This document shows, one piece after another, positions 3,547-33,553 of a stretch of DNA of 44,034 nucleotides; within the stretch, counting starts at the first letter, position 1, and the number at the start of each line of letters is the position of its first letter. Position numbers and translations under genes: made by a program. This DNA is from an uncultured Erysipelothrix sp. (GTDB taxonomy: Bacteria; Bacillota_I; Bacilli_A; Erysipelotrichales; Erysipelotrichaceae), in the NCBI GenBank assembly GCA_947631935.1, contig CANRNG010000006.1, positions 1 to 44,034 of the forward strand, read 5' to 3'. The notes beneath the pieces were generated by a model. The model had not been told where the DNA came from and made no database searches. It saw only the letters and a list, made by a program, of their open reading frames with translations.

Positions 3547-3855
3547 TCACTTAAACATATCTTTGAGTCTATTGCAGATAAACAATCGTTCATAGTCTTC
3601 AATGGTATTTTGACTATAAATCAAAGCTTCCTTTTTTTCCTTGGGAAGTTTTTTTATTTTGTGTTCAAGTTGACTGGCGGATGAACGATCGATAGTTGAC
3701 CACAATGCTTCAATACTGACCACAGAATGACTTTTGGTGTAGCTGGCAGCCGTTTTCAATTTGTTGATGTGTTCGTTCAGTCTTTTCTCAATATCGCTTG
3801 TAATGCCGGTATAAAGGCTATTATCGTCGCACCTAAGCATATAAACATAATACAT
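3547..3855 (-). CDS. GIY-YIG domain protein (UPF0213/YhbQ-YazA-like)
   Basis: MYYVYMLRCDDNSLYTGITSDIEKRLNEHN...; characteristic small stand-alone GIY-YIG family. Confidence 0.9.
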   Translation of the reverse strand: MYYVYMLRCDDNSLYTGITSDIEKRLNEHINKLKTAASYTKSHSVVSIEALWSTIDRSSASQLEHKIKKLPKEKKEALIYSQNTIEDYERLFICNRLKDMFK

Positions 3856-5622: not shown

Positions 5623-6768
5623 ATGAAAGATATTGTATCAATGATTTTTGATAATGCGCTCACAACTTTGGAAAGAAATGAAGTAAATAATTATATATAT
5701 TCTTTAATACCAGATATCGAGGAAAAATTGATAGCTCCTAACTTGAGCGATCTATTTGATGTTGAAACCTCTCCAATTTCATTTGAATTAAACTTTAATA
5801 TTGATAACGAAACTTACAATTGTATATTAAATCTCATTGTCAGTGCCTTTCCAAGAAATTTGTTTAGAAACACAAATTCTTGGGATGGCTTAAGAAAGTT
5901 TTATCAAAAAACTGTAACACCAATATTTACTGAAAATGAAAATGAAGTTTCTTCTGACAATCTTATTTCTGAAAGTAAAATTAAATTGGATAGATTTAAA
6001 AATATTCCAACAGGTTATGAATCTTTCGTCCATGGTGAATTTAACAATCAGTTTGATATGAATGATATTGTTTCAAGTGACAAAGGAATTTTTCATGAGG
6101 TCGTAGTTCTTGAAGATGGAAGTGCAGTTGGTCGAGGTAGCAACGTTTCTTGTCAGCTAGATTTTGATAAATCAAGTACGGACTATGTTGATGTCAAATG
6201 TGGTAGATTCTTTACTGCGCTACTCAAGAAAGATGGAACTGTAGACGTTCATGGCCTAACTTTAGATTACTTTATGAATATGAACCCACATAAGATTGGG
6301 GAATTGTTGAATTGGTACTATATCGGAGATTCATTCTTAGATGATTATGGTCCTGATAAGTACTACCCTAGAAATTTAAGATTCGTAGACATGCCACATG
6401 AGGAATTTGATGGATTCACAGACAATAAGATTCAAATTCTATCTACTAATGGTGAGGTAGTTAGAGAATATGGTGAAGTATCATTAAATACAATATTTAT
6501 GGGCACTTTCTTTAAAAACTTTTCGATGTATAGACAAATGATTGAATCTGAGTATACATATAAGTTTATGCCAGATTACGTTTGGGAAAGAATGACAACC
6601 CATAAGTTTACGACCAAATTGAACCATATCGCTTCAATAGAAGTTATAGATGATGCTTTATTCGCGATTGATAAAGAAGGAAACAAGTTAACATTATTGG
6701 ATGAAGATAAATTCTTCAATTCTTATACGGAATATTGTGATGAAAATTCGGATACAAATTTCTCTTAA
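5623..6768 (+). CDS. RCC1-repeat-like protein, first gene of defence cluster
   Basis: RBS AGGAGGGT. Residues ~155-211: GIFHEVVVLEDGSAVGRGSNVSCQLDF...YVDVKCGRFFTALLKKDGTVDVHG match the RCC1 blade consensus (GxxHxxxLxxDGxVxxxGxNxxxQL / V.CG..FTALL..DGTV...G). Confidence 0.65.
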   Translation: MKDIVSMIFDNALTTLERNEVNNYIYSLIPDIEEKLIAPNLSDLFDVETSPISFELNFNIDNETYNCILNLIVSAFPRNLFRNTNSWDGLRKFYQKTVTPIFTENENEVSSDNLISESKIKLDRFKNIPTGYESFVHGEFNNQFDMNDIVSSDKGIFHEVVVLEDGSAVGRGSNVSCQLDFDKSSTDYVDVKCGRFFTALLKKDGTVDVHGLTLDYFMNMNPHKIGELLNWYYIGDSFLDDYGPDKYYPRNLRFVDMPHEEFDGFTDNKIQILSTNGEVVREYGEVSLNTIFMGTFFKNFSMYRQMIESEYTYKFMPDYVWERMTTHKFTTKLNHIASIEVIDDALFAIDKEGNKLTLLDEDKFFNSYTEYCDENSDTNFS

Positions 6769-6863
6769 ATTGAAAATATAGTCATAACTTTATCTTAAAT
6801 GTTAAATATTGGCGTATTATGATAGAATTTAAATATGTATTAAATCAACGTGGAGGGTATTAA

Positions 6864-9647
6864 ATGAACATAAATTACGATGATCCAAGGTTCGCAAAAC
6901 CTATAAATTGGATTCAAGAGAATATTTTACAAGAACATCCATATGAGTTTATTAAAAATGGTCGTGGAAATAGCCAAGAGGACTTACATTCGTTTTTAGA
7001 TTTTATGACAAAATATCAAGATTGGGACATAGAGGTTCCTGAGTGGATTGAACTAGTGGATAGAGAATTTAAAGATAGTGAAGAAAGAAAAGCGTTTAAA
7101 GAAATTCAAGATAAATCTATCATTGTTTCGATTGGTGAGGATAATGGTCTTTCAGCTTCAAAGCACAATCAAAGTTCATGGCAAAAGTATAGAAGATTGC
7201 TAGAGCGCAAAAATTTTGATAAATATACGATTGACTCAATAGAACGAGATAGTGAAAGTATCCTAAGAAAACTTAGCACAAATACACAAGATAGCGATTC
7301 TATAAAAGGTTTGGCTGTTGGTAGTGTTCAATCAGGAAAAACAACAAATATGGCAGCTTTAATGGCTATGGCGGCTGATGTAGGATGGAATGTATTTATA
7401 GTGTTTTCAGGAACTATTGATAACTTAAGAGTACAAACAGAAAGAAGGCTTTATAACGAGCTTGCTTCGACAAACGGCAATGTTAATTGGGAGTTGATTG
7501 AAAAGTCTTCAATGGATGCGGCTAGCGCTAGGACTCCTCAAAATTTAGATTTTAATAACAATCAATATTTGATTGTTACTTTAAAACAAAAACAAAGACT
7601 TAAAAGGTTATATAAATGGCTTATATCTGACAAAGCAAAAGCCAATCAAATGCGAATACTGATAATAGATGATGAAGCAGACCAAGCGAGTGTAAATACA
7701 AGTGATTTAACTAAGGCTGAAAGAAATGCGATCAATAGAGAAATTGTTCGGCTTGTAAACAATGAAAATGACACTCAATTTAAATCTGTAAACTATATTG
7801 GGTATACCGCAACCCCTTATGCGAATGTTTTGAGTGAAAGTGCAGATGAATCACTTTATCCAAAAGATTTTATTGCTGTTTTAGAACAATCACGCAATTA
7901 TATTGGTCCAAGCCAAATTTTCGGAGTGGAGGGCGAGGACAATTATCCGGGAATGGATATTGTTAATGAAATTAATAAGATAAATCATTTAGAATTCAAC
8001 CAAATTGGAGATATTCATTTAGGTAAAGGAAATGATTTACCGAGGGCACTCAAAGAGTCAATCGCGTATTTTATTGCGGCATCAGCCTCGTTAAGGTTAC
8101 ACCGATTTGAAAGTCCAGTTAGCATGTTAATCCATACAAGTATTAAACAAGCACATCATGACAATGTAGGTAAGTTGATTCAAAATTGGTTGTCAAATGA
8201 AACTGAAGAAGTCCTAGAAATTTCTGAAAGAGTATGGAAAGAACAACATTCAAAGTTTACAATAGATCATTTTAAAGAAAGTGCAAGATTGTATTCTCAT
8301 AATATTGATACAACCAAAAAACCTCACAAATTCTCGGAGTTAGTTAACGAAGTTAGAAGTATCCTAAAAGATGTATCTCCGATAACTAGTATTGAAAAAG
8401 GGGAATATAGTTATCATGATGGATTGCATATTAGTATCGATAACAGTGCTTACAATAAAATTATAAATGAAGATGAAGTATACCGTTTACTTTACCCAAC
8501 CGATGAAGCGGTTCGAAATAAAACTCCGATATTTTTAGTTGTTGGCGGAGCAACACTTTCGAGAGGGCTTACTTTAGAAGGATTAATTTCTACGTACTTT
8601 GTTAGAAACTCAGGCCAGGCTGATACCCTTATGCAAATGGGAAGATGGTTTGGGTTTAGAATCGGGTATGAATTATATCCTAGAATTTGGATGAGTAGTA
8701 GCTCTATAGATCAATTTTCATATTTAGCGGACCTAGACTTTTCACTTAGAAAAGAAATAAAAGAACACAATGTACTAGGTTATACACCTAAGGATGTAGG
8801 GATTAAAGTAAAAACATCACCGAAAGCTATTAGATTAAAAGTTACCTCAGATAATAAAAGTCGAGGTAAAATCGAAAGTGATTTTGATTTTACAGGAGCA
8901 AGTATTCAATCAACTATTTTCATGAATGATGACGAAGTAATGGAAAGTAACTTGCAGCTATTAACTAATTTTATAGATGATTTGGGCTCTCCTAAAATTA
9001 TTCAAAGGGAAGGTATGAATTCTGTATATTGGGAAAATGTCGAATTCAATTTATTTAAGGACTATCTTCATAAGCTAAAATTTAGTGAACGATTCAGAAT
9101 GGGAAATAATATGGAAGCCTTTATTAACTGGGTTGATGATATGACTGAAAAAAGATTACTTGAAAATTGGAATGTAATTGCAGTTGGTAAAGGTGAAATT
9201 AACAGTCCTGAAAATAATTGGCACCAAAAACATTTTTCGTGGAATACAATCCAACGTTCAAAAGTTAAAGAAGCTCGTGTTGACGATATTAGAATTCAAT
9301 CATTAAGGGCTCCTTTGGATTTGTACAGAGATATTGATATATCAAAAATAGAAGAGTTAGATCTAATTGAAATGGTAAAGGGTGGTCATTCTTCGAACTA
9401 TATGGAAGTGAGAAGAAGACTTGGACTGTTAAAAACACCTCAAATAATGTTATATCGAATTGACAAAAACTCTAAAAATAGTACAAGCTCTAAAACTAGA
9501 GAAGACCTCAATACAAAATATGATTTAGCTGGTATTTATATTTCAATTCCTGGAGGAGTTAAAGGTCAAAATTATGTTACACACTTAACCATTAAAATTG
9601 ATGCCAATGACAAATTAATTGCAGAGTACGATATAGGGGATGATTAA
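6864..9647 (+). CDS. Z1 domain-containing superfamily II ATPase/helicase-like protein of restriction-modification-type system
   Basis: Walker A VGSVQSGKTTN; Walker B RILIIDDEADQAS; motif III YIGYTATPYANV; Z1-type GGATLSRGLTLEGLISTYFVRNSGQADTLMQMGRWFGFR. Confidence 0.92.
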   Translation: MNINYDDPRFAKPINWIQENILQEHPYEFIKNGRGNSQEDLHSFLDFMTKYQDWDIEVPEWIELVDREFKDSEERKAFKEIQDKSIIVSIGEDNGLSASKHNQSSWQKYRRLLERKNFDKYTIDSIERDSESILRKLSTNTQDSDSIKGLAVGSVQSGKTTNMAALMAMAADVGWNVFIVFSGTIDNLRVQTERRLYNELASTNGNVNWELIEKSSMDAASARTPQNLDFNNNQYLIVTLKQKQRLKRLYKWLISDKAKANQMRILIIDDEADQASVNTSDLTKAERNAINREIVRLVNNENDTQFKSVNYIGYTATPYANVLSESADESLYPKDFIAVLEQSRNYIGPSQIFGVEGEDNYPGMDIVNEINKINHLEFNQIGDIHLGKGNDLPRALKESIAYFIAASASLRLHRFESPVSMLIHTSIKQAHHDNVGKLIQNWLSNETEEVLEISERVWKEQHSKFTIDHFKESARLYSHNIDTTKKPHKFSELVNEVRSILKDVSPITSIEKGEYSYHDGLHISIDNSAYNKIINEDEVYRLLYPTDEAVRNKTPIFLVVGGATLSRGLTLEGLISTYFVRNSGQADTLMQMGRWFGFRIGYELYPRIWMSSSSIDQFSYLADLDFSLRKEIKEHNVLGYTPKDVGIKVKTSPKAIRLKVTSDNKSRGKIESDFDFTGASIQSTIFMNDDEVMESNLQLLTNFIDDLGSPKIIQREGMNSVYWENVEFNLFKDYLHKLKFSERFRMGNNMEAFINWVDDMTEKRLLENWNVIAVGKGEINSPENNWHQKHFSWNTIQRSKVKEARVDDIRIQSLRAPLDLYRDIDISKIEELDLIEMVKGGHSSNYMEVRRRLGLLKTPQIMLYRIDKNSKNSTSSKTREDLNTKYDLAGIYISIPGGVKGQNYVTHLTIKIDANDKLIAEYDIGDD

Positions 9648-9650
9648 TAT

Positions 9651-11714
9651 ATGTTAAATATAGAAATATTAGAAGTTGGAAAAAATGTTACGACTGGAAG
9701 TGGTGTGTTAAAAGTATTACAAAACTCTCACAGCCCTATTGCAGATTTATTTGTTAGAGAATCAATTCAAAACTCGTTGGATGCAGGAAACGAGCAAGGA
9801 AGCTTTGTTAATGTACGTTTTATAGTGGATAATTTTAACAACCATGACTTTTCTGACAATTTAGAAAAAATAGGTCCGATACTTAAAGAAAAATATAAAA
9901 AAGAAGAAAGTTTTTTGGCGATTAGAGATTCCGGGACAATAGGACTAACAGGTCCATTATCACATGATGATATGAATGGCCAAAATTTCGGGAACTTATT
10001 AAAATTGGTCTATGATCTCGCTAAACCACAAGAAAAACAAGGGGCTGGAGGTTCTTGGGGTTATGGTAAAACTATTTTCTATAGAATGGGAATCGGGCTC
10101 GTGATATACTACTCACGTATTAAATTACCGTCAGGAAAATACCAAGAAAGATTGGCTGTAGCGATGGTAGAAGATGAAGGTTTAGATGATGCAATAATAC
10201 CTCCATATAAAGGTGATACTCGGAGTGGTGTAGCTTGGTGGGGAGAAAGAACTACAACCAACAGTACTGAACCAATCACCGACAGTGAAGAGATAGAAAA
10301 AATACTAAGTATTTTTAATTTAGAAACATACTATGGTAAGGAAACTGGTACAACAGTTATTATTCCTTATATTAATGAGAAAAAAATTCTCCAACATAAC
10401 GAAATAGAAGCAAAGAACGGTAAAACTACTTCTACTATATATGATAGTTTGATTGATTACTTAAAAATTTCTGTGCAAAGATGGTATGCACCACGATTAA
10501 ACAATCATCAGTACAGCTATAACAAAAAGAAGTATTTGCGTGTAAAATTTAATAATGATGACTTAGATTCGCACGATCAAGATCCGTACTTTAGAGTATT
10601 ACTTGATATGTACAATTATGCAATCACCGATAATGAAAAAGCTATTAGTTATATCGATGATCGTAAGAAACTATTGAGGGAGACAATCTTTATCAATTCT
10701 TCAAGCGATGCAGCGCTAGACGAGAGAAATGTTGGTACATTAGTTTTCGGTGTATTCAACTATCAAGAATTGGGAATGTCTAGATCAAACTCACCACTTA
10801 ACCCTCATTTTTTATCAAATATAGAATTAACAGCTAATGACATTAATTCTACAATTGTAACTTTTTGTAGACAACCAGGTATGCTTGTAGATTACGTAGA
10901 TAAAGGGGATTGGGCGCATAACCTTCCTTCAAAAAATGAGGGTGAATATATAATCGCTTTATTTGTTTTGAATTCTAACAATAAAATTAGGTTTAATAAT
11001 GATAAATATGTTCCATTAGAAGAATATATTCGAAAAGGAGAAGAAGCTGATCACATTAGATGGGAAGATCATCAATCATATGGTGTTAATCCGAAAATAG
11101 TATCTAGAATTCAAAGTAATGTTATATCTAAATTGAGGCAAGCTTTTGATGAATTAGTTAAAGAAAAACCAATGGACAACGACAGTCGATTGTCTAGAAG
11201 AGCGGGCGATCTTATTCTGCCTGAAAATAACTTTGGTAATAAGGCAAGAAAAATACCAACGAAAAAAAGAGAAAATGCGGGATTATCAAGAAATACAAGT
11301 CATTGTAAAACAACTATTTTTAATGACAAAATAAAGTATAAAAAAGATGGTATAGAAATACCAATTCAATTTCAAGTTCTGAATAGTAACTTAAAAACCA
11401 TTTATGTTGACTTAGAAATAAAACAAGAATCGAGTAGCCTATCTATAGACAAGTTGGAAAAAGAAATTGATAAACCAAGCCCAATTTCAATTGGAAAGCT
11501 AAATTTAGTAAGCAATGACTCAACTTATATCTTCGATGAAAAAAACATTGATAAAGAAATTTCACTTTCTCGAACAAATTTCGGAACTGTATATCAAGTG
11601 CACCTATCCAAAAGTTTTAGTGTTGGTGAAATTTTATTAGGAACGATTTTTATTAGCGGAACATCCAAAGAATTTGTGCCGGTATTAAGGCTAAAATCAG
11701 CAAAGGGGGAATAA
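9651..11714 (+). CDS. GHKL-type (Hsp90/MutL/MORC-like, paraMORC) ATPase
   Basis: N-box FVRESIQNSLDAG; G1 box FLAIRDSGTIGLTGPL; G2 box GAGGSWGYGKTIFYRMG. Confidence 0.9.
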   Translation: MLNIEILEVGKNVTTGSGVLKVLQNSHSPIADLFVRESIQNSLDAGNEQGSFVNVRFIVDNFNNHDFSDNLEKIGPILKEKYKKEESFLAIRDSGTIGLTGPLSHDDMNGQNFGNLLKLVYDLAKPQEKQGAGGSWGYGKTIFYRMGIGLVIYYSRIKLPSGKYQERLAVAMVEDEGLDDAIIPPYKGDTRSGVAWWGERTTTNSTEPITDSEEIEKILSIFNLETYYGKETGTTVIIPYINEKKILQHNEIEAKNGKTTSTIYDSLIDYLKISVQRWYAPRLNNHQYSYNKKKYLRVKFNNDDLDSHDQDPYFRVLLDMYNYAITDNEKAISYIDDRKKLLRETIFINSSSDAALDERNVGTLVFGVFNYQELGMSRSNSPLNPHFLSNIELTANDINSTIVTFCRQPGMLVDYVDKGDWAHNLPSKNEGEYIIALFVLNSNNKIRFNNDKYVPLEEYIRKGEEADHIRWEDHQSYGVNPKIVSRIQSNVISKLRQAFDELVKEKPMDNDSRLSRRAGDLILPENNFGNKARKIPTKKRENAGLSRNTSHCKTTIFNDKIKYKKDGIEIPIQFQVLNSNLKTIYVDLEIKQESSSLSIDKLEKEIDKPSPISIGKLNLVSNDSTYIFDEKNIDKEISLSRTNFGTVYQVHLSKSFSVGEILLGTIFISGTSKEFVPVLRLKSAKGE

Positions 11715-11717
11715 AAC

Positions 11718-12656
11718 ATGAAAATTGATTTACCACTTTATCCGGTATTGAATGAAGAATTATTGGAATTAATTGATGTAAATTTAGAGAATATAGAATT
11801 TAAATTTCATAAAAAAATTAAGGTTAAAAATAGAGAAACAATATCTATTGAAAAAATCGAAGTAGAGGATAATCTATCAAGTGTAATTGAAATCAATGGT
11901 CCGTCAGTGACTTGGGATGTTGCATATGATAATTTAATAATTAATCAGAAACTTTATATTAAAAACCCGAAATTGTTGTTTGGGGATTATGGACTTGCTG
12001 AGAGCGGTGCAAAAATAGGTATAGGATTTGTTTGGTATTCAAGAGAGTCTAAACAAAGGGGTGCAAAACATATATCTAGCTTTTCATCAAATGATTCGGT
12101 AATAAGTGAAGCATTTGAAGTGTCTTTTGAACCTGGTCAATTACGTGGTAATTTACACTACGAAATAATCTTGTTTATTGATGAAATTGATGAATCCCGT
12201 AGTAGTTATCTTGCGAATGAGTATGGTACTGTTCTAGGTAATATTTATAGTGTGGAGTTAGTACTAGAAGGAAACTCTTCATCATTTCCTATTGTTTCGA
12301 TAGAGGATGATAATCAACCATTGTGGACCTTATATTGTAATTGGGGAGACCTTTCGGATCTGTTCGAAGACAGTGTTAGGTTGAGGTTAAATTTTAATCA
12401 TAAAGATTATGCACTTTTAAATGTTGAATCCAAAAAATACAATGATGAATTTTTTAAACAAATAATGATTAATGTTGTAGCAATAATAATTCAAACTGCC
12501 TTTGATAAGAACGAAATAGAACTCGTTGAAGAGACAGAATATTTTCAACCTGGAACCATGGGGTCTTTAATAAAGTATTATTTGGAAACTCACCAAGTTA
12601 AGTATGATACCCCCACGGACATCTTTTCTTCTGTTATGCGAAGTATCTGGAGGTAA
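11718..12656 (+). CDS. Uncharacterised protein of Z1/GHKL cluster
   Basis: 312-aa ORF directly downstream of the GHKL ATPase (3-nt gap), good RBS (AAAGGGGG), no recognisable catalytic motif. Confidence 0.85.
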   Translation: MKIDLPLYPVLNEELLELIDVNLENIEFKFHKKIKVKNRETISIEKIEVEDNLSSVIEINGPSVTWDVAYDNLIINQKLYIKNPKLLFGDYGLAESGAKIGIGFVWYSRESKQRGAKHISSFSSNDSVISEAFEVSFEPGQLRGNLHYEIILFIDEIDESRSSYLANEYGTVLGNIYSVELVLEGNSSSFPIVSIEDDNQPLWTLYCNWGDLSDLFEDSVRLRLNFNHKDYALLNVESKKYNDEFFKQIMINVVAIIIQTAFDKNEIELVEETEYFQPGTMGSLIKYYLETHQVKYDTPTDIFSSVMRSIWR

Positions 12657-12660
12657 TTAC

Positions 12661-13422
12661 ATGAACTTTAAATATATGTCAAAAATTGAAGCTGAGAAAG
12701 CTATGACTGAAGCAAAAGGTGATACAAAAAAATTACAAGCATTAAATAATAGTGAGTTTTATGAAAGACTAAGAAAAGAACTTCAACTTAGAAGTAGAAC
12801 TATTAAGTATAAATATTTTGGAGACCGAGGGGATATAAGTAAAAAACCAAAAATACAAGGATACAAATATGATTTACTATTTGGACTTGAACTATATGAA
12901 GTACTTACAAGTGAAGTAGAATTTAAAATTTCACTTCGAGAAGCATCTAATCCTGAATTTTGGATATACTTGTCAGTTGTTGGTATTCCTGATATTATAT
13001 CAGAAAGATGGGAAGGTCATAACTCGACTAGATTCTATTCCCAAAACACTAGAAATTGGCTCTATACATTATGGTGGTATATTCATTTGTCGTGGCAAGG
13101 AAGTATCGCTGATACAAAAAAAATAATTGAGAAAAACTCAACCGATACAATTTTAAACTTAGTAGAAAGAACATCACCAAAAGGATATAATATAAAATTA
13201 TATAGAACCTTAATGCATGAGTATTCTAAAATAAATAAGGCGTCTATCAAAAATAAAGGAAGAGATATTTTTAGAACGATTCAAGTAACGAACACTTCAC
13301 TAATTCAAACGATTGAACCTTCTTTGTTTAAGGGTGGAGAAATTACATATGTTAAGAAGCTGTTTAAATTAATAAATCTAGTAGAAGTAAATGGTGAATA
13401 TGTTGAAAAGGAGGAAGAATAA
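12661..13422 (+). CDS. Uncharacterised protein (DUF6339-like) of Z1/GHKL cluster
   Basis: ATG 12661 with RBS TGGAGG; ...NTRNWLYTLWWYIHLSWQGSIADTK... as I recall from DUF6339 proteins. The ORF-track start (12604) overlaps the previous gene. Confidence 0.75.
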   Translation: MNFKYMSKIEAEKAMTEAKGDTKKLQALNNSEFYERLRKELQLRSRTIKYKYFGDRGDISKKPKIQGYKYDLLFGLELYEVLTSEVEFKISLREASNPEFWIYLSVVGIPDIISERWEGHNSTRFYSQNTRNWLYTLWWYIHLSWQGSIADTKKIIEKNSTDTILNLVERTSPKGYNIKLYRTLMHEYSKINKASIKNKGRDIFRTIQVTNTSLIQTIEPSLFKGGEITYVKKLFKLINLVEVNGEYVEKEEE

Positions 13423-14336
13423 TGACCGAATTACTTAATGAAATTATTGAACACTTTATGACTTTTAAGATGGGTGCAAGACCTTTAGAAGGTTTTGATA
13501 AACAAAAATTAACCATCACTCTAAAACATCCTGAGTATTACGGAGTCGGAATTTTAAATGTTAATAATGTTCAGGTCAACGAAAAATTTGCAAATGTAAG
13601 ACTAGAAAATAAAACATTTAATATTAATGGTGAAGAAAACCCTTTCTTAGTCTTATCAAGCACATTATATGAGCATAAATCAAGTTTTGCGCGTCTTTGT
13701 GAAGAATTTTGTAATTTAGGTAAGGATGATTTCAATCGCAACTTAATCACGACCGAGCCCATCAAATGGTGGGAAAAATGGAAAGACTTACTAGGAAATG
13801 TAAGTACTAATAAAACTCCGTATTCTGTAATTGGTGAGCTATTGATTTATAAACAAGAGTTAGAAAAAAAACATGAAAATGTTACATGGGAAGGACCAAA
13901 AGCAAAAAACCATGATATCGAGGGTGATGAGTATCATATAGAAGTTAAGTCAACATTACTACAATATGCCAATGAGGTCACTATTTCTAGTCAATTCCAG
14001 CTGGATGGGAATTATGACTTATATTTAGTCTTACTTAAGATGCAAGAAAGCAGTGATGGTATCTCAATTAATAGCTTAGTTGATCAAATAATAAGTTATG
14101 GGGTGGATGTAGACGGTGTTGAAATAAAATTGGGTGCTTTGGGGATGGCGCATGGTAGTAACGTTAGAGAGAAAAAATTTAGAGTGGTAGAAGGACGAAA
14201 ATATAAAATTGACGAATCTTTCCCAGTTATTAATGCGGAGTCATTTAAAGGTGATCAAGTTCCGAGATATGTGAAAAAAATAAATTATACAATCGATCTT
14301 TCTTCGTTCGAGTATGATACAATTGAGTTTGACTAA
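13422..14336 (+). CDS. PD-(D/E)XK motif protein (DUF4420-like), putative restriction endonuclease
   Basis: HDIEGDEYHIEVKST (PD-(D/E)XK-like D...EVK signature); start overlaps the stop of the upstream gene. Confidence 0.85.
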   Translation: MTELLNEIIEHFMTFKMGARPLEGFDKQKLTITLKHPEYYGVGILNVNNVQVNEKFANVRLENKTFNINGEENPFLVLSSTLYEHKSSFARLCEEFCNLGKDDFNRNLITTEPIKWWEKWKDLLGNVSTNKTPYSVIGELLIYKQELEKKHENVTWEGPKAKNHDIEGDEYHIEVKSTLLQYANEVTISSQFQLDGNYDLYLVLLKMQESSDGISINSLVDQIISYGVDVDGVEIKLGALGMAHGSNVREKKFRVVEGRKYKIDESFPVINAESFKGDQVPRYVKKINYTIDLSSFEYDTIEFD

Positions 14337-14356
14337 TTAACGAATGGAGGATTATT

Positions 14357-15625
14357 GTGTTAAAAATTGTTGAGACATTCTCGGGAATTGGAAGTCAGGC
14401 AAAAGCTCTAAAAAACATAGGAATAGAATTTGAGGTACTAAATACTGTCGATTGGGATATAAATGCAATCTACGCCTATGATATCTTACATAACGGAGCT
14501 CAAGACCTTTCCTTGGTAGATAAATATACTAAAGAAGAGTTAGTTGAAATATTGTCTCGATACAGTTTGTCCTCGAATGGTAAAAATCCAATGAGTAATG
14601 ATTCTCTTGCAAGAATGAGAGAAGAAACATTAAAAAGGTTGTATGCTGCAATAATTAGAACAAAAAATCTTGTCAATATTCAGGATGTAAAAGCTGAAGA
14701 TTTGCCTTTTGAAGTCGACTTACTAACGTATTCTTTTCCTTGCCAGGATCTTTCTATTAGCGGATTTTGGCATGGAAATGCTGGTGGAATAGATAGGAAT
14801 AGTAATAACAGGTCAAGTATGCTTTGGGAAGTTGAAAGAATTTTGTTAGAATTAAATGAAAATGGTCATTCTTTGCCTAAGTTTTTGTTAATGGAGAACG
14901 TGACATCAATTAGGTCTGAACGACATATTGAAAATTTTGATGAATGGCGAAATATTTTAGTTGATTTAGGTTACGAGAATAAAGTTTATGATTTGTGTGC
15001 CTACGATTTTGGTGTACCTCAAATGAGAAAAAGAACTTTCATGATTAGTGTTTTTGTAGGAAATAATAAACAAAAAAGAAAAGTTGCAAGTAAATTTCTA
15101 GAGGAAACAAATCTCGAAGTACACTCTAAAAATAACCGTAAAAATCCAAACATATCTGATTTTCTAAGATTAGATTACTCAATAGATAAATATAAAGAAG
15201 AAGCATTAATAAGCACACCAAATGCAACCCCTTCGAGAAAGAAAATTCGCGAAGAAAATCCAGTCATCGTAGAAAACGGGAAAGCATTGTTGGATAGTGT
15301 GAGAACAATAACGACAAAACAGGACAGACATCCAAATTCTGGTGTTATTAAACATAATTTACATGGAAAAAAGAAAGTTATATACGATGGAAAAGGCGAT
15401 AAAGCTGACTTTAGATATTTAACCCCTCGTGAATGTTTCCTTTTTATGGGCTTTAGTGAAGATGATTATGATAACCTTATCAACAATAATTTTGAGTCCC
15501 GAAGTTCAACTAATTTTCTTACAAAAGATAAATTAATAAAATTAGCTGGAAATAGTATAGTTGTTAATGTACTAGAGGCGGTGTTTAAAAATATGGCCGA
15601 ATTAAATAAACTAATAAATGATTAA
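14357..15625 (+). CDS. DNA (cytosine-5-)-methyltransferase
   Basis: Motif I ETFSGIGSQAKAL; motif IV SFPCQDLSISG; motif VI LMENV; motif VIII QMRKRTFMISV; motif IX/X LTPRECFLFMGF...LAGNSIVVNVLEAVF. GTG start with RBS TGGAGG. Confidence 0.96.
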   Translation: MLKIVETFSGIGSQAKALKNIGIEFEVLNTVDWDINAIYAYDILHNGAQDLSLVDKYTKEELVEILSRYSLSSNGKNPMSNDSLARMREETLKRLYAAIIRTKNLVNIQDVKAEDLPFEVDLLTYSFPCQDLSISGFWHGNAGGIDRNSNNRSSMLWEVERILLELNENGHSLPKFLLMENVTSIRSERHIENFDEWRNILVDLGYENKVYDLCAYDFGVPQMRKRTFMISVFVGNNKQKRKVASKFLEETNLEVHSKNNRKNPNISDFLRLDYSIDKYKEEALISTPNATPSRKKIREENPVIVENGKALLDSVRTITTKQDRHPNSGVIKHNLHGKKKVIYDGKGDKADFRYLTPRECFLFMGFSEDDYDNLINNNFESRSSTNFLTKDKLIKLAGNSIVVNVLEAVFKNMAELNKLIND

Positions 15626-15626
15626 A

Positions 15627-15662
15627 ATAGAGTAATGGAATTAATTCATTATTCTTTTTTTA
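15627..15662 (+). terminator. Probable terminator of R-M-like operon
   Basis: AGAGTAATG-gaattaatt-CATTATTCT followed by TTTTTTT. Confidence 0.6.
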
Positions 15663-15735
15663 ATATAGTTTATAGTTACTTTTAAATCCATGAAACATTG
15701 GTTATAATAGTGGTAGATTTGATGGAGGGTTAACT

Positions 15736-16062
15736 ATGCATGAAATTATAGAGCGCATTACAAAATTTAATAATGACAGAGACTGGGATCAATTTCATAG
15801 CCCTGAAAACTTAGCAAAGTCAATTGCTATTGAAGCAGGAGAATTGTTGGAAAATTTTCAATGGAATTCAGGTTATGATAAAGAAAAAGTAGTGGATGAG
15901 TTGGCCGATATTTTGATATATGCTCTTACTTTATCCAAGAAGATTGGAATTGATGCCAAAGAAATTATTATGAAGAAAATTGATTTCAATGAAGAGAGAT
16001 ATAATGTTAAGAATTCAAAAGGAAATAGCAAGAAGTATACGGAGTTTGTAGATGAAGATTAA
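15736..16062 (+). CDS. MazG-like nucleotide pyrophosphohydrolase
   Basis: AIEAGELLENFQW...VVDELADILIYALTLSKKIGID (ExxE...ExxD of the all-alpha NTP-PPase family). Own RBS GGAGGG. Confidence 0.9.
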   Translation: MHEIIERITKFNNDRDWDQFHSPENLAKSIAIEAGELLENFQWNSGYDKEKVVDELADILIYALTLSKKIGIDAKEIIMKKIDFNEERYNVKNSKGNSKKYTEFVDED

Positions 16063-17737
16063 GAGTATGCCTTTTGATAAAGAAACAGCAAATAAATTAT
16101 CACAAAATGATATAGCGAGGAATTGGCCTGTAGTCTATATTCTCAATAATCGTAAAGAGGCTTATATTGGTGAGACAACAAGTGCATCAAATCGTTTAAA
16201 ACAGCATCTTGATAATGATGATAAAAAAAGATTGACGGATGTGAGTATAATTATAGATGATCGATTTAATAAATCTGCTGTTTTAGATATAGAATCAAAA
16301 TTGATTGAGTATATGTCTGCCGATCAACTTTTTGAGTTGCAAAATAGCAACAGTGGTATGCGTAATCATAATTACTACGATAAAGTGTTCTATGAAGCTT
16401 TGTTTCGGGATATTTGGAACAACCTAAAAAAGAAAAAGATTGTTAAGCATGATATAGATTTATTAATGAATTCAGATTTGTTTAAGTATACGCCATATAA
16501 GCAATTAACAACTGAGCAGTTTGATGTTGTTTTTGAAATTGTTTTGGATCTATTGATTTCAATTCAAATTGGGACTGATTTGACTGTGGTTGTGAATGGA
16601 GAATCTGGAACGGGTAAAACAGTCTTGGCCATGTATATCATGAAGATGGTAGCAGACAATAGTATGTTAGAACTCTTGGGTAGTATTGACGATCAATACA
16701 TTGAACGTTTTATTGAGATGCAAGAAAAGTTGAAGAACTTTTCTGTAGCATTGGTAGTGCCGCAAAGTTCCCTTAGAGCTTCTTTGAAGCGTGTTGCAAA
16801 AGAAATTAAGGGACTTAAGGCAAATATGATTATTGGCCCAACCGAAGCTGCTAGAGGTAATTATGATCTATTGATTGTTGACGAAGCCCACCGTTTGAAA
16901 CAAAGAAAAAATTTAGTAAATATGGGTTCATATGATCAATTGAATAGAGATAAGGGATATGCCATTGATACAACTCAATTAAAATGGATTATGGACGCAT
17001 CTCCTTATCAAATCCTTTTTTACGACGCTGAACAAAGTGTAATGCCCAGTGATGTAAGTGATGAAGAGTTCTTAAAAGCATCTACTGGGAAAAATAGTAA
17101 ACAATATGTTATTAAGTCGCAGTTAAGGGTTAAAGGTGGAAATGACTATTTAAACTACATAAAAAGTATTCTAAGTGATACGCCACCACTTCATCCAGTC
17201 ACTTTTGGTGAATATGATTTTGTGCTATTTGAGAATATTACGAGTATGAAAAATGAAATTTTAGATAAAGAGAACATGTTTGGGTTGTCTCGATTGGTTG
17301 CTGGGTACGCTTGGAAGTGGAATACAAAAGGACTGAATTACGAAGACGCACTTCGAAATAATGTTTATGATATAGAAATTGAAAATGAGCGTTTTATTTG
17401 GAACCAAGCAAATATTGGTTGGGTTAATTCGAAAAATGCAATTAATGAAGTTGGAAGCATTCATACCATTCAGGGGTATGACTTGAATTATGTGGGCGTG
17501 ATCATCGGTCCAGAATTGTCATATGATTTTTCTCGGAATGAATTTGTTGTTTACCCAGAAAAATATTTTGATAAAAACGGAAAAAGAACGGTAAAGGATA
17601 TGAATGAATTAAAGAATTATATCCTGAATATTTATAAGGTACTCCTTACACGAGCGATTGAAGGAACATACCTCTATGTTTGTGATGATAATTTGAGAAA
17701 GTATTTGAAGAGGTTTATAAAAATAAATGGTATATAG
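16052..17737 (+). CDS. GIY-YIG nuclease fused to SLFN-g3/DUF2075 helicase domain
   Basis: N-terminal VVYILNNRKEAYIGETTSASNRLKQHL...IESKLIEYM (GIY-YIG); Walker A VVNGESGTGKTVLAMYI; Walker B YDLLIVDEAHRLKQR; C-terminal HTIQGYDLNYVGVIIG and YKVLLTRAIEGTYLYV. Confidence 0.9.
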   Translation: MKIKSMPFDKETANKLSQNDIARNWPVVYILNNRKEAYIGETTSASNRLKQHLDNDDKKRLTDVSIIIDDRFNKSAVLDIESKLIEYMSADQLFELQNSNSGMRNHNYYDKVFYEALFRDIWNNLKKKKIVKHDIDLLMNSDLFKYTPYKQLTTEQFDVVFEIVLDLLISIQIGTDLTVVVNGESGTGKTVLAMYIMKMVADNSMLELLGSIDDQYIERFIEMQEKLKNFSVALVVPQSSLRASLKRVAKEIKGLKANMIIGPTEAARGNYDLLIVDEAHRLKQRKNLVNMGSYDQLNRDKGYAIDTTQLKWIMDASPYQILFYDAEQSVMPSDVSDEEFLKASTGKNSKQYVIKSQLRVKGGNDYLNYIKSILSDTPPLHPVTFGEYDFVLFENITSMKNEILDKENMFGLSRLVAGYAWKWNTKGLNYEDALRNNVYDIEIENERFIWNQANIGWVNSKNAINEVGSIHTIQGYDLNYVGVIIGPELSYDFSRNEFVVYPEKYFDKNGKRTVKDMNELKNYILNIYKVLLTRAIEGTYLYVCDDNLRKYLKRFIKINGI

Positions 17738-17772
17738 AAAAAAGATCCAGTGAGCATTGGATCTTTTTTCTT
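17738..17772. terminator. Rho-independent terminator (bidirectional-looking)
   Basis: AAAAAAGATCCA-gtgagcat-TGGATCTTTTTT. Confidence 0.85.
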
Positions 17773-17812
17773 AGATTTTCAATAATACAATACACTTACT
17801 AAGTGTAAAAAA

Positions 17813-19717
17813 CTATTCATTCTTAAATGTGAATATAAATTTATCGAAATCTTTGCAGTCTTTAAGTGTCATCACGATGGATGTTTCAGTTAAATAATGC
17901 ATTAATCCTTCAAAAATCAGCTGTAATTCTTTAAACTTGTCTTTTGACATTGCTATCAGAAATACAACATGAACGTTATTTTCGTCCCAATTAATCCCCT
18001 CTGTAGATAAGTAGACGCAAATAATGTTTTTATTTGCTTCTTGCGTAACCGTGTGCGGAATTGCAAAACCTTCATATCCTGTTGAAATAGCATTTTCACG
18101 CTCAATAACTTTGGCATAGAAGTTGTCATCCACATATCCCTGTTCGGATAGTGCATTTGAAAGAAGCTTAATAATTTCATATTTGTCTTTTAATTTTCCT
18201 TGCTCGATAAAGAATAGATCTCGATTGAAAAGGACATCCAAATTCAATTTGAAAAACTTAATTTTTTTATCGGTTTGTATTTCATTGATAATGCTTTTAA
18301 TTTTAATAATATCGTTAGTATTAAAAAATGGCGAGATAGTTATTGTCTTTTTGCTTAATTTAATATCTTTAACTTCAATTGTTGTAATCAATAAATCAAA
18401 GTTATAACAACCCAATAAATCAAGGCTATCAATTATATGTAGTGTATTTAATTCGTTACTAAAGTTAGATTCAATCTTTGCATATAATGTTTCGGGAATA
18501 TTAAGATATTCAGGTGAATAGATTAGAATGTCTAATAATTCGGAATTGGTTTCAAGTTGTTCTACTTCTAGTCCTAAGTGCAAAGCAATAAAGGAGATTT
18601 CATTTTCGTCAACTTCACTACTAATATTATATTCTTTGCTTATTCTTGAATAGATAAAAATTGCAATGTCATACAATAATGGAAATGATTTTTTTAAAGT
18701 TGCCGCCAGAGGATTCACTAATTTTTTGTTGTTGTTGACTCTGAAAATAAGGTTGTGGATATGTAACGTAAAATTTAACAATGAGGATTCTTCGAAGAAA
18801 TTCACATAATATTTTTCACTTACATCGTTGAATACTTCTTTTAAAAACTCAGTAAGAATTTGGATGTTTTCTTTATATTCATAATTCTCAATAAAGTTTT
18901 TAACATTAATGTTTGCTTCAAATAGTATTCTTATTTCTGTAATTTCTTCTTGATCAAAAGTAATGTTCAATATTTTTTGGATAGTGTTTATGTACTTGTC
19001 AGAAATGTAGGTCACACTCTCGTTAAAGTCAACAGCAAGCTCTATAGTATTATCAGAAAGGCGATGGCCGTGTTTAATTCTTGAAATAATTATTAATAAA
19101 TGCATGATAATATTGGTTCTAGAAAAGTCGTTAATGTAAAAATTGAATTCTTTTTGAAGCTCATTCAGTGTTTCTGTTACTACTTTTACGATATGAGACC
19201 CAAAAACTTCTGACAAATGATCGTTGGTAATAAATTTTTCAAAGTCTTCTGATTTAAGTATCTTCATTATTAAATTTCTTCTGTTTGTTTCGCTTCCAAC
19301 TATATCGATATAGTTATTGTTTGAAACTATTTTTAGATTATCTCTCTTATACTCTTTATTAAAATAAACCAAGTCTTTTCTCAAAAGAGAATCAGAAATT
19401 GACAGTTCCTCAGCTAAGTCGTATATGTTGACTTCTTCATTTGAAATTAAGAGTTTGGTTACGATAAAGTAAATTCTATTTTGTAATTCAAGTCCTTCGT
19501 TAGCTTTAATATCTAAATCAAAGTTCGCATCAATGTTTTTAATATAACCGTGCTTTGTTGATAGGATAATTGGATTATCATAGTATTGGTTAATTGTTTT
19601 AATATCGTTAATGATGGTTCTATTTGACACACCAAAAAAATACGCCAATTCCTTACTGGTAATTGATGTGTCTTTTGAAAATAAATACCTTATTATTTCA
19701 TTTTGTCTGCTGTTCAT
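17813..19717 (-). CDS. BglG/LicR-type transcriptional regulator with PRD and C-terminal PTS EIIA (mannitol/fructose-type) domain
   Basis: N-terminal HTH_11-like (RQNEIIRYLFSKDTSITSKELAYFFGVSNRTIINDI), PRD-type helical domains, EIIA region VIERENAISTGYEGFAIPHT. Confidence 0.88.
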   Translation of the reverse strand: MNSRQNEIIRYLFSKDTSITSKELAYFFGVSNRTIINDIKTINQYYDNPIILSTKHGYIKNIDANFDLDIKANEGLELQNRIYFIVTKLLISNEEVNIYDLAEELSISDSLLRKDLVYFNKEYKRDNLKIVSNNNYIDIVGSETNRRNLIMKILKSEDFEKFITNDHLSEVFGSHIVKVVTETLNELQKEFNFYINDFSRTNIIMHLLIIISRIKHGHRLSDNTIELAVDFNESVTYISDKYINTIQKILNITFDQEEITEIRILFEANINVKNFIENYEYKENIQILTEFLKEVFNDVSEKYYVNFFEESSLLNFTLHIHNLIFRVNNNKKLVNPLAATLKKSFPLLYDIAIFIYSRISKEYNISSEVDENEISFIALHLGLEVEQLETNSELLDILIYSPEYLNIPETLYAKIESNFSNELNTLHIIDSLDLLGCYNFDLLITTIEVKDIKLSKKTITISPFFNTNDIIKIKSIINEIQTDKKIKFFKLNLDVLFNRDLFFIEQGKLKDKYEIIKLLSNALSEQGYVDDNFYAKVIERENAISTGYEGFAIPHTVTQEANKNIICVYLSTEGINWDENNVHVVFLIAMSKDKFKELQLIFEGLMHYLTETSIVMTLKDCKDFDKFIFTFKNE

Positions 19718-33382: not shown

Positions 33383-33458
33383 TGGTGGAGCTTATCGGGA
33401 TCGAACCGATGACCTCCTGCGTGCAAGGCAGGCGCTCTCCCAGCTGAGCTAAAACCCC
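33383..33458 (-). tRNA. tRNA-Ala (anticodon TGC)
   Basis: GGGGTTTTAGCTCAGCTGGGAGAGCGCCTGCCTTGCACGCAGGAGGTCATCGGTTCGATCCCGATAAGCTCCACCA; full cloverleaf with encoded CCA. Confidence 0.98.
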
Positions 33459-33476
33459 ATATATAGTTAAGATTAA

Positions 33477-33553
<77 letters not shown>

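What the first reader, a model, noticed from the sequence alone, without database searches (positions are those of the whole stretch)
6864..15625. Multi-gene GHKL(paraMORC)/Z1/PD-(D/E)XK/5mC-methyltransferase defence system
Six closely packed same-strand ORFs encode a Z1-type SF2 ATPase, a GHKL ATPase with intact N, G1 and G2 boxes, two orphan proteins, a PD-(D/E)XK protein and a full C5-cytosine methyltransferase. GHKL/MORC-like ATPases in R-M neighbourhoods with SF2/Z1 proteins were described by comparative genomics (Iyer, Abhiman and Aravind on MutL homologs in R-M systems and MORC origins). The class is therefore not new, but I know of little mechanistic work on it. The prediction is an ATP-driven restriction complex in which Hsp90/MutL-like clamp closure and Z1 translocation license the PD-(D/E)XK nuclease.
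Basis: partly seen in the sequence, partly recalled or inferred. Interest (0 to 1): 0.75.

Follow-up and report, generated by a model that had tools for sequence, protein, structure and literature searches.

The report
Clamp-ATPase restriction-modification operon
Six bacterial genes in a row appear to form an ATP-driven DNA-cutting defence that spares the cell's own methylated DNA; it combines pieces of two catalogued defence gene sets in an arrangement found in many bacterial phyla and in archaea but not named in the defence databases searched.

Summary
Six intact, tightly packed plus-strand genes at 6864-15625 encode a Z1 SF2 ATPase, a GHKL ATPase, two uncharacterised proteins, a PD-(D/E)XK protein (DUF4420) and a C5-cytosine methyltransferase. 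One start codon moves: the fifth ORF begins at 12661, not 12604. The five non-methylase genes form a conserved unit. I found 51 distinct loci with all five, in several bacterial phyla and methanogenic archaea; 46 of 48 order-scored loci have them in the same order on one strand. Catalytic residues are near-invariant. A cytosine methylase lies close by wherever the contig allows a check, and Vsr repair nucleases accompany 35 of 51. The GHKL carries ExxxHxxW in 60 of 60 relatives, matching the paraMORC2 signature of Iyer et al. 2008. The GHKL and the two orphans resemble PADLOC's stand-alone candidate PDC-M33; Z1 and DUF4420 are distant relatives of MzaC and MzaD of the MZA system, whose MzaB and MzaE are absent. 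Best reading: a methylation-guarded, ATP-dependent restriction system with a GHKL clamp triad plus a Z1/nuclease effector pair. No activity was tested. The class was foreseen in 2008, so this is a new variant of a known kind.

The parts
6864..9647 (+). Gene 1: Z1-domain SF2 ATPase, 927 aa, distant relative of MzaC; Shine-Dalgarno-like TGGAGGG before ATG
   Evidence: PF10593 2.7e-52; NCBIfam MzaC 263.8 bits against cut-off 1500; PADLOC MzaC 1.4e-59; upstream sequence
7320..7343 (+). Walker A of gene 1 (GSVQSGKT, residues 153-160)
   Evidence: G153, V155, Q156, S157, G158, K159, T160 58/58
7668..7676 (+). Walker B / motif II of gene 1 (DDE, residues 269-271)
   Evidence: 57-58 of 58
8622..8654 (+). 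DTLMQMGRWFG (residues 587-597), fits the DThhQXuRhFG motif of the SFII helicase type described in 2008
   Evidence: motif wording in PMC2292703
9651..11714 (+). Gene 2: GHKL ATPase, 687 aa, paraMORC2 type, PDC-M33A-like
   Evidence: Profile alignment with PDC-M33A homologues over 339 columns, E=2.9e-19; weak PADLOC PDC-M33A 1.3e-6
9759..9785 (+). N box of gene 2 (ESIQNSLDA, residues 37-45)
   Evidence: E37, Q40, N41, D44 60/60
9927..9953 (+). G1 box of gene 2 (DSGTIGLTG, residues 93-101)
   Evidence: D93, G98, L99, G101 60/60
10047..10070 (+). G2 box of gene 2 (GGSWGYGK, residues 133-140)
   Evidence: 59-60 of 60 for G133, G134, G137, G139 and K140
11040..11063 (+). ExxxHxxW (EEADHIRW, residues 464-471) of gene 2, containing the paraMORC2 signature ExxxH
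   Evidence: E464, H468, W471 60/60; absent from R. etli MzaB
11718..12656 (+). Gene 3: 312-aa protein, predicted beta-sandwich with C-terminal helices; positional counterpart of PDC-M33B
   Evidence: AlphaFold2 pLDDT 90.2, pTM 0.68; weak RhoGDI/UNC119-type sandwich matches; profile match to PDC-M33B homologues only E=0.027
12661..13422 (+). Gene 4: DUF6339-type all-helical protein, 253 aa, PDC-M33C-like (start corrected from 12604)
   Evidence: Start conserved 58/58 with TGGAGG upstream; AlphaFold2 pLDDT 91.9; family model hits a PDC-M33C protein at 8.9e-10
13422..14336 (+). Gene 5: DUF4420 PD-(D/E)XK protein, 304 aa, distant relative of MzaD
   Evidence: PF14390 1.8e-28; MzaD 2.8e-9, 36.6 bits against cut-off 420
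13836..13838 (+). Catalytic-type E139 of gene 5
   Evidence: 53/53
13914..13916 (+). Catalytic-type D165 of gene 5
   Evidence: 53/53
13941..13949 (+). Catalytic-type E174-V-K176 of gene 5
   Evidence: E174 52/53, K176 53/53
14357..15625 (+). Gene 6: C5-cytosine DNA methyltransferase, 422 aa, GTG start
   Evidence: PF00145 8.9e-47; motifs I FSGIG, IV PCQ, VI ENV, VIII QMRKR, X GNSI; closest solved chains 4dkj/8c56, E about 1e-44, catalytic core only

Best explanation
The operon is an ATP-dependent restriction-modification system. Step 1 (inferred from family): gene 6 puts 5-methylcytosine on its own, unknown, DNA motif in the host genome. Step 2 (inferred): the triad of genes 2-4, a dimeric paraMORC2 GHKL ATPase with a beta-sandwich partner and a helical DUF6339 partner, closes as an ATP-driven clamp on DNA that lacks the mark. 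Step 3 (inferred): the clamp engages the Z1 SF2 ATPase (gene 1), which remodels or moves along the DNA, and the PD-(D/E)XK nuclease (gene 5), which cuts. Shown here: conserved linkage and co-inheritance of the five core genes, conserved catalytic residues, constant nearness of a 5mC methylase, and the triad's existence as a separate module elsewhere. Not shown: any activity, any physical complex, the motif, and which subunit reads DNA.
For: 51 distinct loci with all five core genes; 46 of 48 order-scored have the order Z1-GHKL-orphan-DUF6339-DUF4420 on one strand, 2 a permuted order. ATPase and nuclease residues near-invariant. Pairwise distance matrices of the five proteins correlate at r=0.89-0.97, Mantel p=0.001. 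A C5 methylase lies in the held flank of 45 of 51; of the other six, four (L059, L060, L062, L082) have one on the same contig 9-17 kb away, the Synechococcus plasmid has one 3.9 kb past its origin, and L039 ends at a contig edge. Vsr nucleases in 35 of 51 fit DNA that really carries 5mC. Independent direction: in 392 genomes the DUF6339 model finds 4 genomes, each with the match next to a paraMORC2 GHKL. Precedent: a paraMORC3-type GHKL-nuclease (VcSduA) blocks phage, and E27A or K557A abolish it (PMC12137116).
Against: No experiment. Stand-alone PDC-M33-type triads mostly lack a nearby methylase, Z1 or DUF4420, so the triad may have an activity of its own. In some Bacillaceae and Paenibacillus the methylase is 9-17 kb away, so it is not always in the operon. 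Correlated distances show co-inheritance, not contact, and shared ancestry inflates them. Sequence relation of gene 3 to PDC-M33B is weak.
Confidence: 0.6

Rival explanations
1. Abortive-infection reading: the triad and Z1/DUF4420 sense phage replication or odd DNA structure and stop the cell; the methylase is only a passenger or guards a few sites.
For: Stand-alone triads without methylase exist; the related MZA arrangement carries AIPR/MzaE, which also matches AbiU.
Against: A C5 methylase is near the core wherever it could be checked and Vsr in 35 of 51; AIPR is in the flanks of only 4 loci.
Confidence: 0.17
2. Modification-dependent (type IV-like) restriction: the core attacks foreign modified DNA and the methylase belongs to something else.
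For: Some loci have the methylase outside the operon.
Against: Stable methylase linkage would expose the host if its own mark were the target; the methylases next to the core co-vary with it (r=0.74-0.94).
Confidence: 0.08
3. A repair or mismatch-processing system of the MutL-Vsr kind rather than defence.
For: GHKL+S5 proteins resemble MutL, Vsr is a frequent neighbour, and the 2008 authors thought some members might serve repair.
Against: Patchy distribution across distant phyla, rarity within the phylum (3 of 392 full systems), permuted and duplicated arrangements (L077, L087, L019).
Confidence: 0.06
4. Two separate systems lie side by side: a solitary or type II methylase, and a Z1/GHKL/DUF4420 system.
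For: The downstream methylase co-varies less with the core (r=0.74-0.81) than core genes with each other.
Against: The correlation is still strong, an internal methylase sits between DUF6339 and DUF4420 in 16 loci, and the gap in the window is 20 bp.
Confidence: 0.09

Closest known systems
paraMORC2 / Z1-type SFII helicase / RE-fold nuclease neighbourhoods of Iyer, Abhiman and Aravind 2008 (PMC2292703)
   Same: GHKL with ExxxH motif; SFII helicase with DThhQXuRhFG motif; RE-fold protein with E-D-ExK; frequent cytosine methylase and Vsr; Gram-positive and cyanobacterial hosts.
   Different: The held text does not list the beta-sandwich and DUF6339 partners, and its figures could not be read, so whether this exact operon is drawn there is unknown.
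MZA system (PADLOC/NCBIfam MzaB-E models)
   Same: Z1 (MzaC) and DUF4420 (MzaD) homologues next to a GHKL gene and a cytosine methylase.
   Different: No MzaB or MzaE match; the GHKL is paraMORC2; gene 3 and DUF6339 are present where the R. etli MZA locus has AIPR.
PDC-M33 (PADLOC phage-defence candidate, genes A-B-C)
   Same: GHKL with ExxxHxxW, a protein of about 300 aa, and a DUF6339-like protein, in the same order.
   Different: Stand-alone triad without Z1/DUF4420 in the loci read; sequence divergence is large (PADLOC finds only A, at 1.3e-6, in the window).
VcSduA, paraMORC3-type Shedu (PMC12137116)
   Same: GHKL ATPase coupled to a PD-(D/E)XK nuclease; ATPase and nuclease residues shown to be needed for phage defence.
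   Different: Single fused protein, other nuclease family (DUF4263), no methylase or Z1.
M.MpeI (4dkj, 8c56), CG-specific C5 methylase
   Same: Closest solved catalytic core to gene 6.
   Different: The target-recognition region does not align, so CG specificity cannot be carried over.

Membership tests
paraMORC2 (Iyer 2008) | GHKL ATP-binding motifs intact | tested here: met
   N, G1 and G2 box residues 59-60 of 60
[quoted passage not shown]
   E464 and H468 60/60; the S5 fold itself was not modelled
paraMORC2 (Iyer 2008) | S5 domain following the GHKL domain | not tested
MZA system | MzaC (Z1) | tested here: inconclusive
   Homologous, but 263.8 bits against an equivalog cut-off of 1500
MZA system | MzaD (DUF4420) | tested here: inconclusive
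   36.6 bits against cut-off 420
MZA system | MzaB (GHKL) | tested here: not met
   No match up to E=10; R. etli control matches at 2.6e-108
MZA system | MzaE (AIPR) | tested here: not met
   No AIPR homologue among the window's ORFs; R. etli control matches MzaE at 3.3e-101
PDC-M33 | PDC-M33A, B and C models all match | tested here: not met
   Only A, at 1.3e-6, by the PADLOC models
PDC-M33 | Homologous triad in the same order | tested here: inconclusive
   A: E=2.9e-19; C: 8.9e-10 by family model on L109, 0.0085 profile-profile; B: 0.027
Restriction-modification system | DNA methyltransferase with intact motifs linked to a nuclease | tested here: met
Restriction-modification system | Nuclease spares DNA carrying the methylase's mark | not testable with these tools
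   Needs methylome and restriction assays

The most novel reading that the evidence does not exclude
The paraMORC2 + beta-sandwich + DUF6339 triad is an exchangeable ATP-driven DNA clamp that works alone in PDC-M33-type loci and, in this system, has been placed between a Z1 translocase and a DUF4420 nuclease to make a MutL-MutH-helicase-like restriction machine guarded by 5mC.
Probability: 0.3. Interest if true: 0.7.

Novelty: new variant of a known kind. Interest (0 to 1): 0.5.

Why it matters
How bacterial MORC-like ATPases act is largely open, and eukaryotic MORC proteins are thought to descend from them (PMC2292703). This operon gives a defined five-protein set with named residues, many natural homologues to choose from, and a stand-alone triad for comparison, so the role of the GHKL clamp in restriction can be tested directly. 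It also shows that defence databases split one recurrent architecture into unrelated entries (MzaC/MzaD, PDC-M33A, type II methylase).

Tried and rejected
Single-sequence scan of genome contigs with the GHKL found nothing; an alignment query found 61 loci. I first took the ~640-aa weak GHKL hits for HtpG; reading them showed ExxxHxxW and PDC-M33-type neighbours, so that was dropped. Filing under MZA was rejected for lack of MzaB and MzaE. Predicting the methylation motif from M.MpeI was rejected because the recognition region does not align. Fold search for DUF6339 gave nothing at E below 0.001; for gene 3 only beta-sandwich resemblance with TM-scores up to 0.28 of the query among the listed matches. 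No close PDB sequence relative for Z1, GHKL or DUF4420. Phage records held no GHKL match. Viral contigs held Z1 relatives, most of them next to DUF4420, but no DUF6339. Searching 248 genomes of a Mycoplasma-like order, in the hope of finding a system next to M.MpeI, found none. Chromosomal insertion-site analysis was not possible: no close homologue of the flanking regulator in relatives.
Full report
Observation. The six ORFs are real, intact and almost without gaps. Pfam identifies Z1, DUF4420 and the C5 methylase clearly, DUF6339 only weakly, and the GHKL and gene 3 not at all. The GHKL boxes are plain in the sequence and conserved. The start of gene 4 is moved to 12661 by conservation and by the ribosome-binding-like sequence TGGAGG. 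The host genome has 1.56 Mb in 103 contigs and holds one copy of the GHKL and two C5 methylases, one of them in this operon.

Relatives. A second species of the same genus has all six genes in the same order (L018). Two further genomes of the class have the core, one with two methylases upstream (L039, L040). An alignment of five GHKLs then brought 61 loci from the GTDB genome collection. Models built from seed alignments and applied to all ORFs of these loci gave 52 loci with the five core genes, 51 after removing L080, a duplicate of L039. Of 49 loci whose order was scored (L077, L087 and L091 left out for duplications or split frames), 47 have one order on one strand and 2 a permuted order; without L080 that is 46 and 2. 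Hosts include Bacillota, Mycoplasmatota, Pseudomonadota, Chlorobiota, Bacteroidota, Verrucomicrobiota, Cyanobacteriota and Methanomassiliicoccales archaea.

Catalytic residues. In 60 GHKLs, E37, Q40, N41, D44, D93, G98 and the ExxxHxxW residues are invariant. In 58 Z1 proteins the Walker A and most motif residues are invariant. In 53 DUF4420 proteins, E139, D165 and K176 are invariant and E174 is missing once. The window methylase has motifs I, IV, VI, VIII and X. Related sequences are counted each, so these are not independent events.

Methylase link. In 45 of 51 loci a methylase lies within the held flank; motif checks pass in 43 of these 45, and the two failures (L056, L083) sit at a locus edge and have full-length genes in the genome search. 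The Synechococcus plasmid has one close to its origin, and L039 ends at a contig edge. Sixteen loci have a methylase between DUF6339 and DUF4420. Vsr occurs in 35 of 51 loci, though no Vsr was found in the window's own genome.

Co-inheritance. Protein distance matrices of the five core genes correlate at 0.89-0.97 and with the downstream methylase at 0.74-0.81. This shows the core travels together; it does not show contact. The GHKL tree places the window with L018 in a supported group of mostly Bacillota that also holds a Bacteroidota and a Mycoplasmatota sequence, which is compatible with transfer but not proof.

Test from another side. The same 392 phylum genomes were searched with the GHKL profile and, separately, with the DUF6339 profile. 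DUF6339 was found in four genomes, and in each the match lies beside a paraMORC2 GHKL. One of them, G049, holds only GHKL, a 288-aa protein and DUF6339. PADLOC names these PDC-M33A, B and C at 1.5e-216, 3.1e-92 and 1.4e-82; its contig ends just beyond, so missing partners cannot be excluded there. Thirteen further genomic stretches around GHKL hits showed PDC-M33-type GHKLs, nine of them with both partners recognised, none with a Z1 or DUF4420 match, two with a methylase within the stretch and one with Vsr. Several of these stretches are cut by contig or fetch ends.

Decomposition. The window GHKL aligns with these PDC-M33A-type proteins through the ExxxHxxW motif at E=2.9e-19. DUF6339 is linked to PDC-M33C by the family model (8.9e-10 on L109; 0.0085 in profile comparison). 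Gene 3 and PDC-M33B show only weak similarity (0.027, against 0.38 for a control comparison), so their equivalence rests mainly on position and size. Genes 1 and 5 are distant relatives of MzaC and MzaD. An MZA-type locus, R. etli p42f, served as control: it matches MzaB, C, D and E, whereas the window matches neither MzaB nor MzaE.

Structures. DUF6339 is predicted with high confidence as an all-helical protein without a solved look-alike. Gene 3 is predicted as a beta-sandwich with C-terminal helices; resemblance to RhoGDI and UNC119 is at fold level only. Neither has an obvious enzyme site. The helical protein has several invariant or nearly invariant arginines, which might touch DNA (inference).

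Mechanism. The proposal follows the 2008 model, in which MORC and paraMORC proteins loop DNA and link recognition to cutting, by analogy with MutL and its partner nucleases and helicase. It is given more weight by VcSduA, where the GHKL Glu and the nuclease Lys are both needed for phage defence. Which subunit recognises the site is unknown; no separate recognition domain was identified in the core proteins.

Surroundings. No terminator-like site was found between the methylase and the next two genes, a MazG-like protein and a GIY-YIG/Schlafen-type helicase; one follows the helicase at 17736-17771, but the count of such sites in the region is not above chance. A homologue of this helicase also follows the methylase in L070. 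They may belong to the same transcription unit, but they are not part of the conserved core.

Verdict. The finding is real and well conserved. The class was foreseen in 2008. What is added is the extent of the conserved unit, the identity of the two orphans, the methylase link, the failed MZA membership and the relation to PDC-M33.

Noticed in passing
window 15736-17737: MazG-like gene overlapping a GIY-YIG / Schlafen-group-3 helicase gene directly downstream, with a terminator-like hairpin only after the helicase; a homologue of the helicase follows the methylase in L070, and a MazG homologue lies upstream of Z1 in L046.
   Followed up: partly
window 5623-6768: 381-aa protein with a weak RCC1-repeat hint, 95 bp upstream of Z1; no homologue near the other loci.
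   Followed up: partly
window 6000-18000: AT skew is clearly positive here and mostly negative elsewhere in the window, which may mark an acquired block or simply gene strand and composition.
   Followed up: no
L129 256-5820 and L019: Synechococcus plasmid carries two GHKL/DUF6339 units in opposite directions, one with Z1 and DUF4420 and one with a methylase.
   Followed up: partly
L077, L087: Loci with two GHKL genes: L077 has two GHKL-orphan-DUF6339-DUF4420 sets around one Z1; in L087 a second GHKL follows DUF4420.
   Followed up: no
L018 4514-5667: Two overlapping ORFs that read like an IS3-type transposase pair lie about 2.7 kb beyond the methylase end of the sister operon; judged by eye, not searched.
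   Followed up: no
window 33383-33553: tRNA-Ala and tRNA-Ile genes next to each other, as in rRNA operon spacers; rRNA was not looked for.
   Followed up: no
window 3547-3855: Small minus-strand GIY-YIG ORF, E=4.4e-14.
   Followed up: no
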